Below are positions 20,651 to 28,388 of a stretch of DNA of 64,000 nucleotides, piece by piece. The notes beneath the pieces are model-generated. The model was not told the origin of the DNA. It saw only the letters and a list, made by a program, of their open reading frames with translations, and made no database searches. A program made the position numbers and the translations under genes. How positions within the stretch are numbered: the first letter of the stretch is position 1; each line of letters starts with the position of its first letter. Location of the stretch: NCBI RefSeq assembly GCF_947581915.1, contig NZ_CANPWG010000038.1, forward strand, positions 1-64,000. The letters are read 5' to 3'. This stretch comes from Candidatus Palauibacter scopulicola (GTDB lineage: Bacteria > Gemmatimonadota > Gemmatimonadetes > Palauibacterales > Palauibacteraceae).

Positions 20651-21424
<774 letters not shown>

Positions 21425-21449
21425 CTCCGTAAGGGAAGGTGGAAGAACC

Positions 21450-22865
21450 ATGCCTCAGAACGAGACCATCGCCGGGCTCGGGCTCGACGAGTACAAGTAC
21501 GGCTTCGTCACGGAGGACAAGCCCGTCTTCAAGGCCGTCCCCGGCCTCTCCAGCGACATCGTCCGACAGATCTCGCATCACAAGGAGGAGCCGGACTGGA
21601 TGCTCGAGTTCCGACTGAAGGCGCTCGACGTCTACTACTCCAAGCCGATGCCGAAGTGGGGCGGGGATCTCTCGAAGCTCGAGGACACGCTCGACGAGAT
21701 CTACTTCTACCTCAAGCCGCAGGACCAGATGGAGCGGTCCTGGGACGATGTCCCGCAGGAGATCAAGGACACGTTCGAGAAGCTCGGGATCCCCGAGGCG
21801 GAGCGTAAGGCGCTCGCCGGAGTCGGAGCCCAGTACGAGTCCGAGATGGTCTACCACTCCCTGAAGGAACAGTGGGAGGAGCAGGGCGTGATCTTCGAGT
21901 CGATCGAGGATGGACTCGCGAAGCACCCGGAGCTGTTCCGGCAGTACTTCTCGACCGTCGTTCCGACGCACGACAACAAGTTCGCGGCGCTCAACTCGGC
22001 CGTGTGGTCGGGCGGATCGTTCGTCTACATCCCGAAGGGGGTGAAGGTGGAGATTCCGCTCCAGGCCTACTTCCGGGTCAACGCGGAGCGCATGGGCCAG
22101 TTCGAGCGCACCCTCATCATCTGCGAGGAGGGGGCCGAGGCCCACTACATCGAGGGCTGCACGGCGCCGGTCTACTCGACGGACTCGTTCCACTCCGGCG
22201 TCATCGAGATCGTGGTCAAGAAGGGCGCGCGCTTCCGCTACACCACGATCCAGAACTGGTCGAACAACATGTACAACCTCGTCACGCAGCGGGCGCTCGT
22301 GCACGAGGACGCGAAGATGGAGTGGCTCGACGGGAACCTGGGCTCGAAACTCACGATGAAGTATCCGTCGTGCTTCCTGGTCGGAGAGCGGGCGCACGGC
22401 GAGATCCTCTCCATCGCGTACGCGGGGGACGGCCAGCACCAGGACACGGGCGGCAAGGTGATCCACGCCGCCCCCAACACGACGTCCCAGATCACCTCGA
22501 AGTCCATCTCGAAGGGGCTCGGGCGCTCCTCGTACCGCGGACTGTGCAAGGTGTATGACGGCGCGGAAGGCGCGAAGTCCAACGTCGAGTGCGACGCGCT
22601 GCTGCTCGACGAGCAGTCTCGGACGGACACCTACCCCTACATCGAGATTGATGAGAACACGGCGTCGATCGGGCACGAGGCCACGGTATCGAAGGTGGGC
22701 GACGAGCAGCTCTTCTACTTGATGAGCCGTGGCCTGGACGAGGCGGAGGCGATGGCGATGATCGTGCGCGGCTTCATCGAGCCGGTGGCCAAGGAGCTGC
22801 CGCTCGAGTACGCGATCGAACTGAACCGGCTGATCGAACTGGAGATGGAAGGGTCGGTCGGATAG
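21450..22865 (+). CDS. sufB: Fe-S cluster assembly scaffold SufB
   Basis: 471 aa; cytoplasmic scaffold on which the nascent Fe-S cluster is built, with SufC and SufD. Family features: [11 protein letters not shown] near the start, [15 protein letters not shown]-type region (about 70), [16 protein letters not shown] (about 190), [18 protein letters not shown] (containing a conserved Cys, about 240) and a C-terminal [16 protein letters not shown]-like stretch shared with SufD. The beta-helix core is intact and the length normal. The ATG at 21450 follows GGAAGAACC; longer in-frame starts lie inside sufC. 25 bp gap after sufC. Confidence 0.95.
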
Positions 22866-22914
22866 CCGTCCGAACTCCCACTCCCGGACACGGACGACGA
22901 GGGATTCTCGGGAT

Positions 22915-24246
22915 ATGAGCACGATGACGGCCGGGCCGGCGCAGTCGACGCTGGCCACGGCGGATTTCGATATGCTTGCCGGCAGGCTGACGGAGCCGGA
23001 AGCGATCGCGGGGGCGCGGGCCGCCGCATGGGAACGGTTCACCGCCCTTCCCTGGCCGACGAAGAAGTCGGAGGAATGGCGGTACACGGACCTCACGAAG
23101 GTCGGTTTCGAGACGCTGACGCCGGTCGTCCCGGCGCCCGCCACGTCGGAAGCGCTGTCGGCGGATGTGCGCGAGGTGCTCGGGCGCTCCGGAGAGCGGG
23201 CGGGCGTCGTCGTGCTCCGCGAGGGGCGGGTCGCGCATCTCGAACTCGAACCCGAGGTGGCGCGGAGCGGCGTGGTCCTGTGCTCGATCCGGGACGCGGC
23301 GGACCGGCATCCGGAGGTGCTGAGGCGCGCGCTGTTCGAAGCGCAGCCGGGGCCCGCGGAGGAGAAGCTCTGGGCGCTGCACCTCGCCCTCCTGGGCGGC
23401 GGCTACTTCCTGCATGTGCCGCGCGGGGTTGAGATGCCGGCGCCGATCCACGCGTTCCACATCGTCGAGCGGGCGGGCACGCTCTCCTCGGCACATTCGT
23501 TCGTGTACGCGGAGTCGGGCGCGCGGGCCGCGGTGATCGACGAGTTCCTCTCCGACGATCTCGATGCGGAGACCGTCTCGCTGCACGGGGCGACGATCAC
23601 GGGGGAGGGGGGCGCGGGGATCGAGTACGTCGCGCTCCAGCGCTTCGGCCGGGGCGTGAAGCGGTTCTCGACGCAGCACGTCGCCGCGGGCCGCGACTCG
23701 CGGATCGTGACGTTCAACGTCACGCTGGGCGGCGACCTCTCGCGGGCGGACGTCACGAGCCGTCTCGACGGGCCCGGGAGCGACAGCGAGATGCTCGCGC
23801 TCTGGTTCGGCGACTCCGACCAGCACTTCGACCACCACACGCTGCAGCACCACGCGGCGCCGCACGCGCACAGCGATCTGCTGTTCAAGGGGGCGCTCAC
23901 GGACTCGGGGTCGAGCGTGTTCCGCGGGCTGATCCGGGTCGACAAGGGCGCCCAGCTCACGGACGCCTACCAGACGAACCGCAACCTGCTCCTGAGCGAG
24001 GGCTCTCATGCCTCCGCGCTTCCCAACCTGGAGATCGAGGCCGACGATGTGCGCTGCTCGCACGGGGCGACGATCGGGCAGGTGGAGGACGGGCAACTCT
24101 TCTACCTGATGAGCCGCGGCCTCACGCGGCGCCAGGCCGAGCGCCTGCTCGTGTTCGGGTTCTTCGACGAGGTTCTGGGCCGCCTTCCGATGGAGGGGGT
24201 GCGGGCGCGCGTACGCGAAGCGATCGAGGAGAAGATCGGGCTATGA
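22915..24246 (+). CDS. sufD: Fe-S cluster assembly protein SufD
   Basis: 443 aa; SufB paralogue and its scaffold partner. Shows PWPTKKSEEWRYTDLTK (about residues 44-60), the classic SufD N-terminal motif, a beta-helix core with HAPHAHSDLLFKGAL (about 315-328; conserved His) and the C-terminal [25 protein letters not shown]. The sequence is intact. The stop overlaps the start of the following Rieske gene (ATGA), so these are coupled. The 49-bp gap after sufB holds no obvious signal. Confidence 0.93.
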   Translation: MSTMTAGPAQSTLATADFDMLAGRLTEPEAIAGARAAAWERFTALPWPTKKSEEWRYTDLTKVGFETLTPVVPAPATSEALSADVREVLGRSGERAGVVVLREGRVAHLELEPEVARSGVVLCSIRDAADRHPEVLRRALFEAQPGPAEEKLWALHLALLGGGYFLHVPRGVEMPAPIHAFHIVERAGTLSSAHSFVYAESGARAAVIDEFLSDDLDAETVSLHGATITGEGGAGIEYVALQRFGRGVKRFSTQHVAAGRDSRIVTFNVTLGGDLSRADVTSRLDGPGSDSEMLALWFGDSDQHFDHHTLQHHAAPHAHSDLLFKGALTDSGSSVFRGLIRVDKGAQLTDAYQTNRNLLLSEGSHASALPNLEIEADDVRCSHGATIGQVEDGQLFYLMSRGLTRRQAERLLVFGFFDEVLGRLPMEGVRARVREAIEEKIGL

Positions 24247-24554
24247 GCCGATTCGTCACGGTGGCCAGGGTCGACGATGTACCGGAGAACGGGACGTGCG
24301 GGGTGATGGCCGAGGACCTGGCGATCGCCCTTATCCGGAGCGGGGGCGAGGTGTACGCGCTCGAGGACTGCTGCTCCCACGAGGAGTTCCCGCTCTCGGA
24401 CGGCGAGGTCGAGGCGGGCGAGATCACCTGCCTCCTCCACGGGGCGCGCTTCGATCTCGCGACTGGCGAGCCGAGGGCGCTCCCGGCGGTCATGCCGGTC
24501 CGGCGCTTCGACGTGCGGATCGACGGGGACGACATTCAGGTCGACCTCGCCTGA
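24243..24554 (+). CDS. Rieske [2Fe-2S] ferredoxin in the suf operon
   Basis: 103-aa soluble Rieske-type protein. Ligands are CSH (Cys44, His46) and CLLH (Cys63, His66) with the usual spacing of about 17 residues. No signal or membrane helix, so cytoplasmic. Stand-alone Rieske proteins of this type are often inserted between sufD and sufS; they are thought to supply electrons or to test cluster transfer, but the function is not settled. ATGA overlap with sufD shows coupling. Length agrees with NirD-like/biphenyl-dioxygenase-type ferredoxins. Confidence 0.9.
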   Translation: MSRFVTVARVDDVPENGTCGVMAEDLAIALIRSGGEVYALEDCCSHEEFPLSDGEVEAGEITCLLHGARFDLATGEPRALPAVMPVRRFDVRIDGDDIQVDLA

Positions 24555-24580
24555 ACGGCCCAGCCGAGGACCGGAGCCCG

Positions 24581-25921
24581 ATGGCGGAGACGGCAGGAAT
24601 GACGGATACGAAGCGCGCGACGGGCGTGCTTGCGTCCGACGGCCCCCCGGGGGCGGCCGATCGCCGCGATGCCGGTGGGGCTTCGGAGAATGGCGCCTGG
24701 GATCTCGCGGAGATCCGGGCCCAGTTCCCCATTCTCTCGCGGGAAGTCAACGGCCACCCTTTGGCCTATCTGGACAACGCGGCGAGCTCGCAGCAGCCGC
24801 TCCGCGTGCTGGACCGGGTCGAACGCTATCTGCGCCAGCAGCACGCGAACGTGCACCGCGGGGTGCACCAGCTCAGCGCGGAGGCGACGGAGGCCTACGA
24901 GGGCGCGCGCCGTTCGGTGGCGGCGCACGCGGGCACGACGGACCCGGCGGAGATCGTCTTCACGCGCGGCACGACGGAGGCGGTGAACCTCGTCGCGTCG
25001 AGTTGGGGGGACGCGTTCATCGGCGCGGGCGACGAGATCGTGCTCACGAAGATGGAGCACCACTCGAACCTCGTGCCGTGGCAACTTCTCGCGGGCCGTA
25101 CGGGGTGCGTTCTCCGCTTCGTCGACGTCACGGCCGGGGGCAGGCTCGATCTGGACGACTTCGACCGGCTCCTCGGGGAGCGGACCCGGCTCGTCGCCTG
25201 TACGCACGTCTCCAACAGCCTGGGGACCGTCAATCCGGTCCGGGAGATCGTGGACCGGGCCCACGCGGCCGGGGCGTTGACGCTCATCGACGGCGCGCAG
25301 GCCGCGCCCCACATGCTGACCGACGTCGCGAAGACCGGGTGCGACTTCTACGCGTTCAGCAGCCACAAGATGTGCGGCCCCACCGGCGTCGGGGCGCTGT
25401 GGGCCAGGCGCGAGCTGCTGGAGGAGATGCCTCCGTACCAGGGCGGGGGCGAGATGATCTCGGATGTACGGCTCGAGGGATCTTCCTGGGCGAAGGTGCC
25501 GCACAAGTTCGAGGCCGGAACGCCCAACATCTCGGGCGTCGTGGGCTTCGGCGAAGCCGCCCGCTTCCTCGCGGACCTCGGGTCGGAGGCGATCGCGTCG
25601 CACGAGGACACCCTGAAGCGAGCCGCGCTCGAGCGGCTCGACGAGATCGAAGGGCTTCGCCTGTACGGCCCCCGCGAGGAGCGGACGGCGGTCTTCTCCT
25701 TCACGTACGGCGACATCCATCCGCACGACCTCTCGACGATCCTCGACCAGCGCGGCATCGCGATCCGGGCGGGGCACCACTGCAACCAGCCGCTGATGGA
25801 CCACTACGGGCTCAGCGCCACGGCCCGGGCCAGTTTCTACTTCTACAACTCGCCGCGGGAAATCGACGCGCTGTGCGACGGCCTCGCCCTGGCAGCCGAA
25901 GTCTTCGGCGGACTGGCGTGA
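24581..25921 (+). CDS. sufS: Cysteine desulfurase SufS
   Basis: 446 aa PLP enzyme; removes sulfur from cysteine as a persulfide for Fe-S assembly. PLP lysine is Lys263 in FSSHKMCGPTGVG; the active Cys401 sits in RAGHHCNQPLM. Both are diagnostic of group II (SufS/CsdA) desulfurases. About 40 extra N-terminal residues, rich in Asp/Gly/Ala, precede the typical start (LAEIRAQFPILSREVNG) and may be disordered; a later ATG (24599) is possible. The desulfurase is followed immediately by its sulfur acceptor SufU (5 bp gap). Cytoplasmic. Confidence 0.94.
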   Translation: MAETAGMTDTKRATGVLASDGPPGAADRRDAGGASENGAWDLAEIRAQFPILSREVNGHPLAYLDNAASSQQPLRVLDRVERYLRQQHANVHRGVHQLSAEATEAYEGARRSVAAHAGTTDPAEIVFTRGTTEAVNLVASSWGDAFIGAGDEIVLTKMEHHSNLVPWQLLAGRTGCVLRFVDVTAGGRLDLDDFDRLLGERTRLVACTHVSNSLGTVNPVREIVDRAHAAGALTLIDGAQAAPHMLTDVAKTGCDFYAFSSHKMCGPTGVGALWARRELLEEMPPYQGGGEMISDVRLEGSSWAKVPHKFEAGTPNISGVVGFGEAARFLADLGSEAIASHEDTLKRAALERLDEIEGLRLYGPREERTAVFSFTYGDIHPHDLSTILDQRGIAIRAGHHCNQPLMDHYGLSATARASFYFYNSPREIDALCDGLALAAEVFGGLA

Positions 25922-25925
25922 ACCG

Positions 25926-26423
25926 ATGATCGAACCCCGTTCGGGAGCGTCCGGGACCATCGACCGGGAAATCCCCTCGTCGCTCAATCAGCTGTACCAG
26001 GAAGTCATCCTCGACCACTACCGGAAACCCCGGAACAAGGGACATCTGGAGGGGGCCACGCACGCGATCACGATGAACAACCCGCTCTGCGGCGACGTGA
26101 TCGAACTCATGTTGCGCGTGGAGGGAGGGAGCATCGCGGAGGCGCGCTTCCTGGGCCGCGGGTGCTCGATCAGCCTCGCGTCGGCGTCGATGCTCACGGG
26201 ACGCGTGAAGGGGAAGTCGCTCGACCAGGCGCTGGAACTCGCCGGGAAGTTCACTCATCTCCTGCACGGAAACGAGGCGCTGCTGTCGGACGACGACCTC
26301 GGCGATCTGCGCACGCTGGCGGGGGTTTCGAAGTTTCCGGTTCGCATCAAGTGCGCGCTGCTGGCGTGGAACTGTCTCGAGGAGCTGGGGGACGGGACGG
26401 ACGAGGACCGCGGCCCGGCGTGA
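25926..26423 (+). CDS. sufU: Zinc-dependent sulfur transferase SufU
   Basis: 165 aa. Accepts persulfide sulfur from SufS. The zinc ligand set is present: Cys55 and Asp57 (NPLCGD), Cys80 (GRGCSIS) and Cys143 (IKCALLAW). The insertion around TGRVKGKSLDQAL between the second and third cysteine separates SufU from IscU. The N-terminal LYQEVILDHYRKPRNKG is the standard motif; about 20 extra residues precede it. Ends in a GTGA overlap with rsgA, which links Fe-S assembly to the downstream genes. Confidence 0.94.
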   Translation: MIEPRSGASGTIDREIPSSLNQLYQEVILDHYRKPRNKGHLEGATHAITMNNPLCGDVIELMLRVEGGSIAEARFLGRGCSISLASASMLTGRVKGKSLDQALELAGKFTHLLHGNEALLSDDDLGDLRTLAGVSKFPVRIKCALLAWNCLEELGDGTDEDRGPA

Positions 26424-27331
26424 CACCCGGTGGCCCCTCCGCTGCCGTCGGCCGCGTGCTGCGGATCGCGGGCGGGGTCTATCACGTGGACGATTCCACA
26501 ACGGTGGTCCAGGCATCGCTTCGCGGGCGCCTGAAACGGACGGATTCGCGCATCGTTTCGGTCGGTGACCTCGTCGAACTGGAACGCGTCGGCGACGAGA
26601 TGCGGATCGTTCGGCTCCGCGCGCGAAGCGGCGCGCTCTCCCGGCACGGCGTCTCCAAACGGCGCGAGCAGGTGATCGTCGCGAACGTGGATCAGGTCGC
26701 CGTCGTCGTTTCGGTGACGGCGCCCGATCCCGATTTCCTCATGGTGGACCGACTGCTCGCGCTTGCGGCGCTGAGCGGCATCGACGCCTTCCTCATCGTG
26801 AACAAGACGGACCTCGCGGAGCCCGCGTCCGGAGACGGCCTCGGGCAGTACGCGGCGCTCGGCGTGGCGACGCTGCGGACGAGCGCCGAATCGAGGGCCG
26901 GACTGACGGCGCTTGCCGGACGCCTCGCGAGCCGGATCACCGTGCTCAGCGGGCAGTCGGGCGTGGGGAAGTCGAGCCTGTTGAACGCGCTCGTCCCCGA
27001 ACTCGACCTCCGCGTCGGCGAGATCAGCGAGCGGCGGGGACGAGGACGGCACACGACGGTGGCTTCGGCGCTCTATCGATATCCTGGCGGCGGCTACGTG
27101 GCGGACACGCCCGGCCTTCAGTACCTGGCGCTGTGGGGGCTGGATCCGGCGGAGCTTCCGGGGGGCTTCGTCGAGATCGCGCAAGCGGGGGAGGGCTGCC
27201 GGTTCGCGGACTGCCGACACCGGGTGGAGCCGGATTGCGCGGTGCGCGCGGCCGTGGAGGATGGGACGATCCGGCGCCGGCGGCTGGAGAGCTACCTGCG
27301 GCTCCTCGACGAAGCGGAGAAGGGTCGGTGA
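26420..27331 (+). CDS. rsgA: Ribosome small-subunit-dependent GTPase A
   Basis: 303 aa circularly permuted GTPase that helps late 30S maturation. An OB-fold N-terminus (VYHVDD, then GDLVELERVGDEM) precedes the GTPase motifs in permuted order: NKTD (G4), then the P-loop GQSGVGKSSLLN (G1), a switch region with GRGRHTT and DTPG (G3). A C-terminal zinc knuckle has CRFADCRH with a further Cys. The GTG start at 26420 overlaps the sufU stop (GTGA) and gives the normal length; longer frames run inside sufU. The stop overlaps the next gene the same way. Confidence 0.93.
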   Translation: MTPGGPSAAVGRVLRIAGGVYHVDDSTTVVQASLRGRLKRTDSRIVSVGDLVELERVGDEMRIVRLRARSGALSRHGVSKRREQVIVANVDQVAVVVSVTAPDPDFLMVDRLLALAALSGIDAFLIVNKTDLAEPASGDGLGQYAALGVATLRTSAESRAGLTALAGRLASRITVLSGQSGVGKSSLLNALVPELDLRVGEISERRGRGRHTTVASALYRYPGGGYVADTPGLQYLALWGLDPAELPGGFVEIAQAGEGCRFADCRHRVEPDCAVRAAVEDGTIRRRRLESYLRLLDEAEKGR

Positions 27332-27924
27332 GCGAAGGCTGGAGCCCGGGGCGGGTCGCGCGTCGGCTGGCGGCGGCGGGCCACACCGCCGTCGACGCCG
27401 GGGCGGCGGAGCGTCACGCGGCCGTGACCCTCGTGGTTCGTCCGCGGGGCCACGATCTGGAGGTGCTCTTCGTCCGGCGGGCGGAGGTGCCCGGCGATCC
27501 ATGGTCCGGCCACATGGCGCTTCCCGGCGGACACCGGGATGCGGCGGACCCGGATCTCCTGGAGACGGCGCGCCGCGAGTTGCGCGAGGAGGTCGGGCTC
27601 GATCTGCCGCGCGGCGGGTTCCTCGGGCGGCTCGACGACCTGCACCCGGTGACGCGCCGGATCCCGTCGATCCTCATCTCCCCCTTCGTCGCCTGGCACG
27701 GGGAGGACGTCCGCATCTCCACCAATGCCGAGGTGCAGTATCACGTGTGGGCCCCGCTCGGCGCGCTGCGCGACCCGTCTCTGCGCTCCGAGATCCGCTA
27801 CCCGGATGGTGGCCGGGAACACGCGTGGCCTTCCATTTTGTACGAGGGCGACGCCATTTGGGGGCTGACGCACCGCGTCGTCATGAACTTCCTCGACATC
27901 ATCACGGAGAGAACCAGCGAATGA
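27328..27924 (+). CDS. NUDIX hydrolase, CoA pyrophosphatase type
   Basis: 198 aa. Nudix fold with HMALPGGHRDAADPDLLETA followed by RRELREEVGL (about 68-97), resembling the NudL/CoA-pyrophosphatase subgroup (GG..D..D...TA.RE..EE.GL). The first acidic residue of the canonical box is Asp rather than Glu. Predicted to hydrolyse CoA or related nucleoside diphosphate derivatives in the cytoplasm. GTG start at 27328 overlaps the rsgA stop; the stop overlaps the osmC start by ATGA. Substrate assignment is by family only. Confidence 0.85.
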   Translation: MSEGWSPGRVARRLAAAGHTAVDAGAAERHAAVTLVVRPRGHDLEVLFVRRAEVPGDPWSGHMALPGGHRDAADPDLLETARRELREEVGLDLPRGGFLGRLDDLHPVTRRIPSILISPFVAWHGEDVRISTNAEVQYHVWAPLGALRDPSLRSEIRYPDGGREHAWPSILYEGDAIWGLTHRVVMNFLDIITERTSE

Positions 27925-28388
27925 GTGAAGTCGTCTACCGCTCGCACGTGAAGATCGTGCGGCAGAAGGGACCGTACCGGACGGCGGAGATCCCGGCCAC
28001 GGATGCACCGGTCGACTTCGGCGTCCATTCGGCGATCGCCGAGTACTACGGGGTCCGCGACCAACGCGATGTCGCCACGACCCTCGACTATGTCATCGCC
28101 GCAACCGGCGGCTGACTGGCCGGAACCTTCGGGGGCGCGCTGGAAGCGCGTGGCGTAAAGGCCGATGAGGGACGGTTGGTGGCGAACGTGGAGGGCGAGG
28201 TCGAGACGGACGACGGCGTGCTCGTGATCCGGCGGATCCGGGCTCGATATCGTCTTCAGGCGGACGAGGCGCATGCCGACGCCATCCGGCGCGCCTTCGA
28301 GGCCCACCCGCCGAAGTGTCCGGTCTACCGAACGCTCTCCGGCTGCATCGAGATCACGACGGAACTCGACATCGTACCCGTCGCCTAG
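27921..28388 (+). CDS. OsmC-like peroxidase read through an in-frame TGA: candidate selenoprotein (Sec65)
   Basis: One frame of 155 aa interrupted only by TGA at 28113-28115 (codon 65). Before it: VDFGVHSAIAEYYG and TLDYVIAATGG. After it, in the same frame: LAGTFGGALEARGVKADEGRL and then CPVYRTLSG. In OsmC-family thiol peroxidases the peroxidatic Cys occupies exactly this site (GG-Cys-LxGTFGGAL), with the resolving Cys in CPVYR, which is present. Selenocysteine there would give a Sec-type hydroperoxidase; Sec-containing OsmC-like proteins are known from metagenomes. The 5' end is coupled to the nudix gene (ATGA); the stop shares CTAG with the convergent M20 gene. A Cys-to-stop mutation is the alternative. 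See the hairpin entry. Confidence 0.78.
28113..28151 (+). promoter_or_regulatory. Candidate bacterial SECIS of osmC
   Basis: From the TGA (28113-28115), 25 nt downstream, the loop TGGAA (28141-28145) tops a 6-bp stem: GCGCGC (28135-28140) with GCGCGT (28146-28151), one G-U pair at the base. The apical loop has G at its second position, as in bacterial SECIS elements, and lies within the usual 16-37 nt from the Sec codon. In a region this GC-rich, hairpins are common, so this supports but does not prove recoding. Confidence 0.55.

What the first reader, a model, noticed from the sequence alone, without database searches (positions are those of the whole stretch)
27921..28388. OsmC-like peroxidase with in-frame TGA at the peroxidatic Cys: probable selenoprotein
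Reading through a single TGA (28113-28115, codon 65) joins two halves of one OsmC domain in the same frame. The TGA is exactly where the family's first catalytic Cys sits (GG-x-LAGTFGGAL); the second Cys (CPVYR) is intact. A 6-bp hairpin with a TGGAA loop lies 25 nt downstream, in the bacterial SECIS distance range, and the upstream gene is coupled by ATGA. Sec-OsmC proteins are rarely described.
Basis: partly seen in the sequence, partly recalled or inferred. Interest (0 to 1): 0.85.

Follow-up and report, generated by a model that had tools for sequence, protein, structure and literature searches.

The report
Selenium-containing OsmC-type redox enzyme gene
A gene from a marine Gemmatimonadota bacterium uses the stop codon TGA to insert the rare amino acid selenocysteine at the active site of an OsmC-type redox enzyme; OsmC selenoproteins have been catalogued since 2005, but this branch seems to use selenium in every intact copy found, across at least six phyla.

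Summary
The observation and its interpretation both hold. ORF 27921-28388 reads through one TGA (28113-28115, codon 65) and encodes an OsmC-fold protein with Sec at the first redox position and Cys133 at the second. The genome (Ca. Palauibacter-like, Gemmatimonadota) has tRNA-Sec, SelA, SelB and SelD. The hairpin is not significant in this sequence alone, but comparative evidence is strong: 92 of 100 distinct homologues keep all six stem pairs, with compensatory Val(GTG)/Ala(GCA) and Ala(GCA)/Val(GTG) swaps and mostly a GGA apical loop. Every strong homologue listed that covers the column has TGA there (Gemmatimonadota, Acidobacteriota, and 80 of 80 named loci that also include Actinomycetota, Chloroflexota, Nitrospirota, KSB1); no Cys form was found at good score. 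The kind is known: 'OsmC-like protein' selenoproteins have been listed since 2005 (PMC1088965, PMC2398784, PMC9312934, PMC13188914). What may be new: this clade falls far below NCBIfam's OsmC-selenoprotein cut-off (13.5 bits against 95), has T at +4 rather than the published UxxT, and appears to be Sec-only. Its function, selenol-based peroxide or thiol redox chemistry resolved by Cys133, is inferred from the family.

The parts
27921..28388 (+). Sec-OsmC gene (155 aa with Sec65), TAG stop
28113..28115 (+). in-frame TGA read as selenocysteine (codon 65), first OsmC redox position
28135..28151 (+). SECIS-like hairpin: 5' arm 28135-28140, loop TGGAA 28141-28145, 3' arm 28146-28151 (loop U-A can pair, leaving GGA)
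28317..28319 (+). codon for Cys133 (CPVYR), probable resolving Cys; invariant in 36 aligned rows
27133..27924 (+). upstream NUDIX hydrolase ORF, overlapping the OsmC start by ATGA; this neighbourhood was found only in the genus

Best explanation
The gene encodes a genuine selenoprotein of the OsmC/Ohr fold. SelB with Sec-tRNA recognises the hairpin just downstream of the UGA and inserts Sec at residue 65, the position of the first (reactive) Cys of OsmC/Ohr. The likely chemistry, inferred from the family, is that the Sec65 selenolate reduces an organic hydroperoxide or similar oxidant, the selenenic acid is resolved by Cys133 as a selenenylsulfide, and a cellular dithiol (dihydrolipoamide or a thioredoxin-like donor) regenerates it. 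Shown here by computation: the frame, fold, machinery, conserved TGA and covarying hairpin. Inferred: Sec insertion itself, substrate and reductant.
For: tRNA-Sec 79.7 bits with TCA anticodon; SelB 370, SelA 485, SelD 366 bits, the SelD gene itself with one in-frame TGA. A TGA inside every strong match listed in the class (136 genomes with a strong match), always at the same residue where aligned; 80 of 80 best named loci down to 50% identity including the isolate Haloechinothrix halophila; all strong Acidobacteriota hits except one fragment that lacks the column. SelB over cut-off in 8 of 8 host genomes tested. SelA in 128 of 136 genomes with the gene against 156 of 258 without (odds ratio 10.5, p 4e-14, not corrected for kinship). 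Stem: 576 of 600 pairs form against 559 +/- 1.5 (max 565 of 2000) when codons are reshuffled within amino acid and column. Val73 GTG is always with Ala76 GCA, and Ala73 GCA always with Val76 GTG. The own SelD gene also has a GGA apical loop. Model pLDDT 92; best PDB matches are OsmC and Ohr. The profile aligns residue 65 with the OsmC Cys (1ukk) and C133 with the second Cys.
Against: No protein evidence. The hairpin of this one sequence is not significant by energy and Rfam has no match. Eight of 136 genomes with the gene lack a detected SelA, plausibly gaps in MAGs but not checked. Eight of 100 distinct segments break the standard stem; six of these have another candidate hairpin by a simple scan and two have none.
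Confidence: 0.95

Rival explanations
1. Pseudogene or sequencing error: the TGA is a nonsense mutation in a Cys-OsmC (TGC/TGT to TGA).
For: A one-base change from a Cys codon would give TGA; the window comes from a metagenome-assembled genome by its nearest relatives.
Against: The same TGA is found in over a hundred assemblies and at least six phyla with the rest of the ORF intact, including an isolate genome.
Confidence: 0.01
2. TGA is a recoded sense codon (for example Trp) or is read by plain readthrough, without Sec.
For: The ORF is open whatever residue TGA is read as.
Against: The neighbouring NUDIX gene uses TGA as a normal stop (27922-27924); Sec machinery is present; the stem covaries; the position is a redox Cys.
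Confidence: 0.02
3. A Sec-containing OsmC whose main job is not hydroperoxide reduction but other thiol or selenol chemistry (for example persulfide, disulfide or electrophile handling). This is a rival on function only; it agrees that the protein contains Sec.
For: Only about 10-18% identity to the solved OsmC/Ohr structures; long branch to all Cys-OsmC sampled (2.54 changes per column); the catalytic Arg/Glu of Ohr were not mapped here.
Against: Both redox positions are kept and the closest folds are OsmC and Ohr.
Confidence: 0.3

Closest known systems
OsmC-like protein selenoprotein family (Sargasso Sea 2005, PMC1088965; GOS 2008, PMC2398784; reviews PMC9312934, PMC13188914)
   Same: OsmC domain (PF02566/COG1765) with Sec in the redox motif and a bacterial SECIS; predicted from sequence.
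   Different: Published motif UxxT; here T is at +4 (U-x-x-G-T). The published sequences were not in hand, so whether it is the same subfamily is unresolved.
NCBIfam NF041052 OsmC-related (seleno)protein
   Same: OsmC domain; a family whose name allows Sec members.
   Different: Window protein scores 13.5 bits (cut-off 95), its paralogue 18.3; the one over-cut-off member found has a Cys and motif SCLMNQ.
OsmC / Ohr hydroperoxide reductases (1nye, 1ukk, 6ebg)
   Same: Fold and two redox positions.
   Different: Sec in place of the first Cys; about 12-18% identity to these three; no Cys form found in the clade.

Membership tests
Bacterial selenoprotein | in-frame UGA conserved at a redox Cys position | tested here: met
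Bacterial selenoprotein | SECIS hairpin just downstream of UGA with G in the apical loop | tested here: met
   (comparative); single-sequence energy not significant
Bacterial selenoprotein | SelA, SelB, SelD and tRNA-Sec in the genome | tested here: met
Bacterial selenoprotein | Sec detected in the protein | not testable with these tools
   needs 75Se labelling or mass spectrometry
OsmC/Ohr superfamily (PF02566) | profile match over the curated cut-off and OsmC fold | tested here: met
OsmC/Ohr superfamily (PF02566) | two redox-active positions, the second in a CP motif | tested here: met
   residue 65 and C133 invariant
OsmC/Ohr hydroperoxide reductase | catalytic Arg and Glu near the reactive Cys, and peroxidase activity | not tested
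   R20 is invariant but was not mapped onto the Ohr site; activity needs an experiment
NCBIfam NF041052 OsmC_like_Se | score over 95 bits | tested here: not met
   13.5 bits; none of 150 genomes of the phylum over cut-off
Published OsmC-like selenoproteins (UxxT) | T three residues after Sec | tested here: inconclusive
   T at +4 here; published sequences not available to align

The most novel reading that the evidence does not exclude
A separate, deeply branching OsmC subfamily that exists only as a selenoprotein: no Cys form survives in at least six phyla, so automatic annotation is liable to cut the gene in two or miss it, and its activity may depend strictly on selenium.
Probability: 0.55. 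Interest if true: 0.55.

Novelty: new member of a known kind. Interest (0 to 1): 0.42.

Why it matters
Many selenoprotein families have numerous Cys counterparts (for example in the GOS table, PMC2398784). A widespread OsmC branch with none found, in Gemmatimonadota, Acidobacteriota and others, would suggest a redox task for which sulfur is not good enough, in groups whose selenium use is little described. It also supplies an aligned, covarying SECIS set that can be used to annotate these genes correctly.

Tried and rejected
Single-sequence folding of the hairpin and Rfam gave nothing significant. phmmer against PDB with the single protein gave no hit; the profile gave weak hits only, the structure clear ones. 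No copies in viral contigs or plasmids. Gene neighbourhood (SufS-SufU-RsgA-NUDIX-OsmC) was found only in the genus, so it says little about function. Pseudogene and plain readthrough were considered and rejected.

Full report
Observation. The frame from ATG 27921 to TAG 28386-28388 contains exactly one TGA, at 28113-28115, codon 65. Read through, it gives a 155-aa protein with an OsmC domain over Pfam's cut-off (46.2 bits). The start overlaps the stop of the upstream NUDIX gene as ATGA.

Machinery. The genome in which the window lies (3.6 Mb, 96% complete) has a tRNA-Sec gene with TCA anticodon, SelB, SelA and SelD, each over its curated cut-off. The SelD gene has an in-frame TGA of its own. 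Its nearest named relatives are Candidatus Palauibacter and other Gemmatimonadota MAGs.

Conservation. Of 394 genomes of the class, 150 have a match and 136 a strong one; every listed strong match has a TGA inside. In the aligned sample the TGA is always at the same residue, in the motif U-[LM]-x-G-T. A scan of 84,980 genomes with the family alignment kept the 80 best relatives, from Gemmatimonadota, Acidobacteriota, Actinomycetota (including the isolate Haloechinothrix halophila), Chloroflexota, Nitrospirota and KSB1; all 80 have TGA and none Cys or any other codon, although one of the two scan patterns asked for a Cys codon. Among 297 Acidobacteriota genomes all strong hits that reach the column have one TGA; the strongest hit without it is a fragment that does not reach the column. 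A few hits carry a second stop, mostly where the alignment seems to run to the natural end; one with two TGAs (G164) was not examined.

SECIS. In 100 distinct downstream segments, the six-pair stem 20-25/31-36 nt after the TGA is complete in 92. Where residue 73 is Val (GTG), codon 76 is always GCA; where residue 73 is Ala as GCA, residue 76 is Val (GTG): pairing is kept through changes on both sides. The GTG/GCA form occurs in both subclades A and B, the GCA/GTG form in B. Reshuffling codons within each column and amino acid gives 559 +/- 1.5 pairs against 576 observed, above all 2000 shuffles. That control keeps the protein but not kinship. The loop is UGGAR in most, so that GGA sits 27-29 nt after the TGA; the own-genome SelD hairpin also ends in GGA. 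In a few members the standard stem is lost, and another hairpin with a G-containing loop can be drawn about 7-9 nt closer to the TGA (L079, L081, L082; L205, L207). In this sequence alone the hairpin is not significant.

Co-occurrence. SelB is over cut-off in 8 of 8 host genomes tested from several phyla. In the class, SelA is found in 128 of 136 genomes with the gene and 156 of 258 without.

Fold and place. The AlphaFold model (pLDDT 92, 36 rows) matches OsmC and Ohr structures best. A profile alignment puts residue 65 on the first OsmC Cys and Cys133 on the second. A tree of OsmC groups puts the window clade A with the paralogous clade B (one B member, L051, is in the same genome) in one group with 100/99 support and a long stem; all its members are Sec. 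B nests within A in this tree, with modest support at several forks. A separate OsmC group (here called C) mixes Sec and Cys members, with a Cys gene (L105) sister to a Sec gene (L119); the Sec members have a TCGCGC-TGTAY-GCGCGA hairpin, and in the Cys sister the loop G is lost (TCTAT). That pair is a single case, but it shows what one would expect when a SECIS is no longer needed.

Known or new. OsmC-like selenoproteins with motif UxxT were predicted from Sargasso Sea data in 2005 and are in later catalogues, and NCBIfam has an OsmC (seleno)protein model. The window protein scores far below that model's cut-off, as does its paralogue, and no genome of 150 in the phylum passes it. I could not align the published sequences, so whether the catalogued family is this clade is open. 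The Palauibacterales genome paper does not mention selenoproteins or OsmC.

Verdict. A real selenoprotein gene by all computational tests; a new member of a known kind. The Sec-only pattern and the taxonomic breadth are the interesting parts. The enzymatic role is inferred.

Noticed in passing
L051 (G000:C21:137424-137870, minus): Second, 33% identical Sec-OsmC paralogue (clade B, U-M-L-G-T-L-N-G) in the same genome, with its own compensating stem (GCA/GTG).
   Followed up: yes
L018 (G000:C30:54584-55510, minus): SelD of this genome is itself a predicted selenoprotein (GAGUACK), with a GGA-loop hairpin after its TGA.
   Followed up: partly
L113-L119 and L105: Another OsmC group (GAUTSMTIALYAR) mixes Sec and Cys members; the Cys sister L105 has lost the loop G of the hairpin, a natural Sec/Cys exchange.
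   Followed up: partly
L079, L081, L082; L205, L207: In these members the usual SECIS stem is lost and a different hairpin with a G-containing loop can be drawn about 7-9 nt closer to the TGA, possibly a register-shifted SECIS.
   Followed up: partly
window 21363-27924: SUF cluster (SufB, SufD, Rieske-type, SufS, SufU by appearance), RsgA and NUDIX precede the OsmC gene; the order was found within the genus only.
   Followed up: partly
G164:C32:25495-25980: A homologue reported with two in-frame TGAs and 65% identity, not examined.
   Followed up: no
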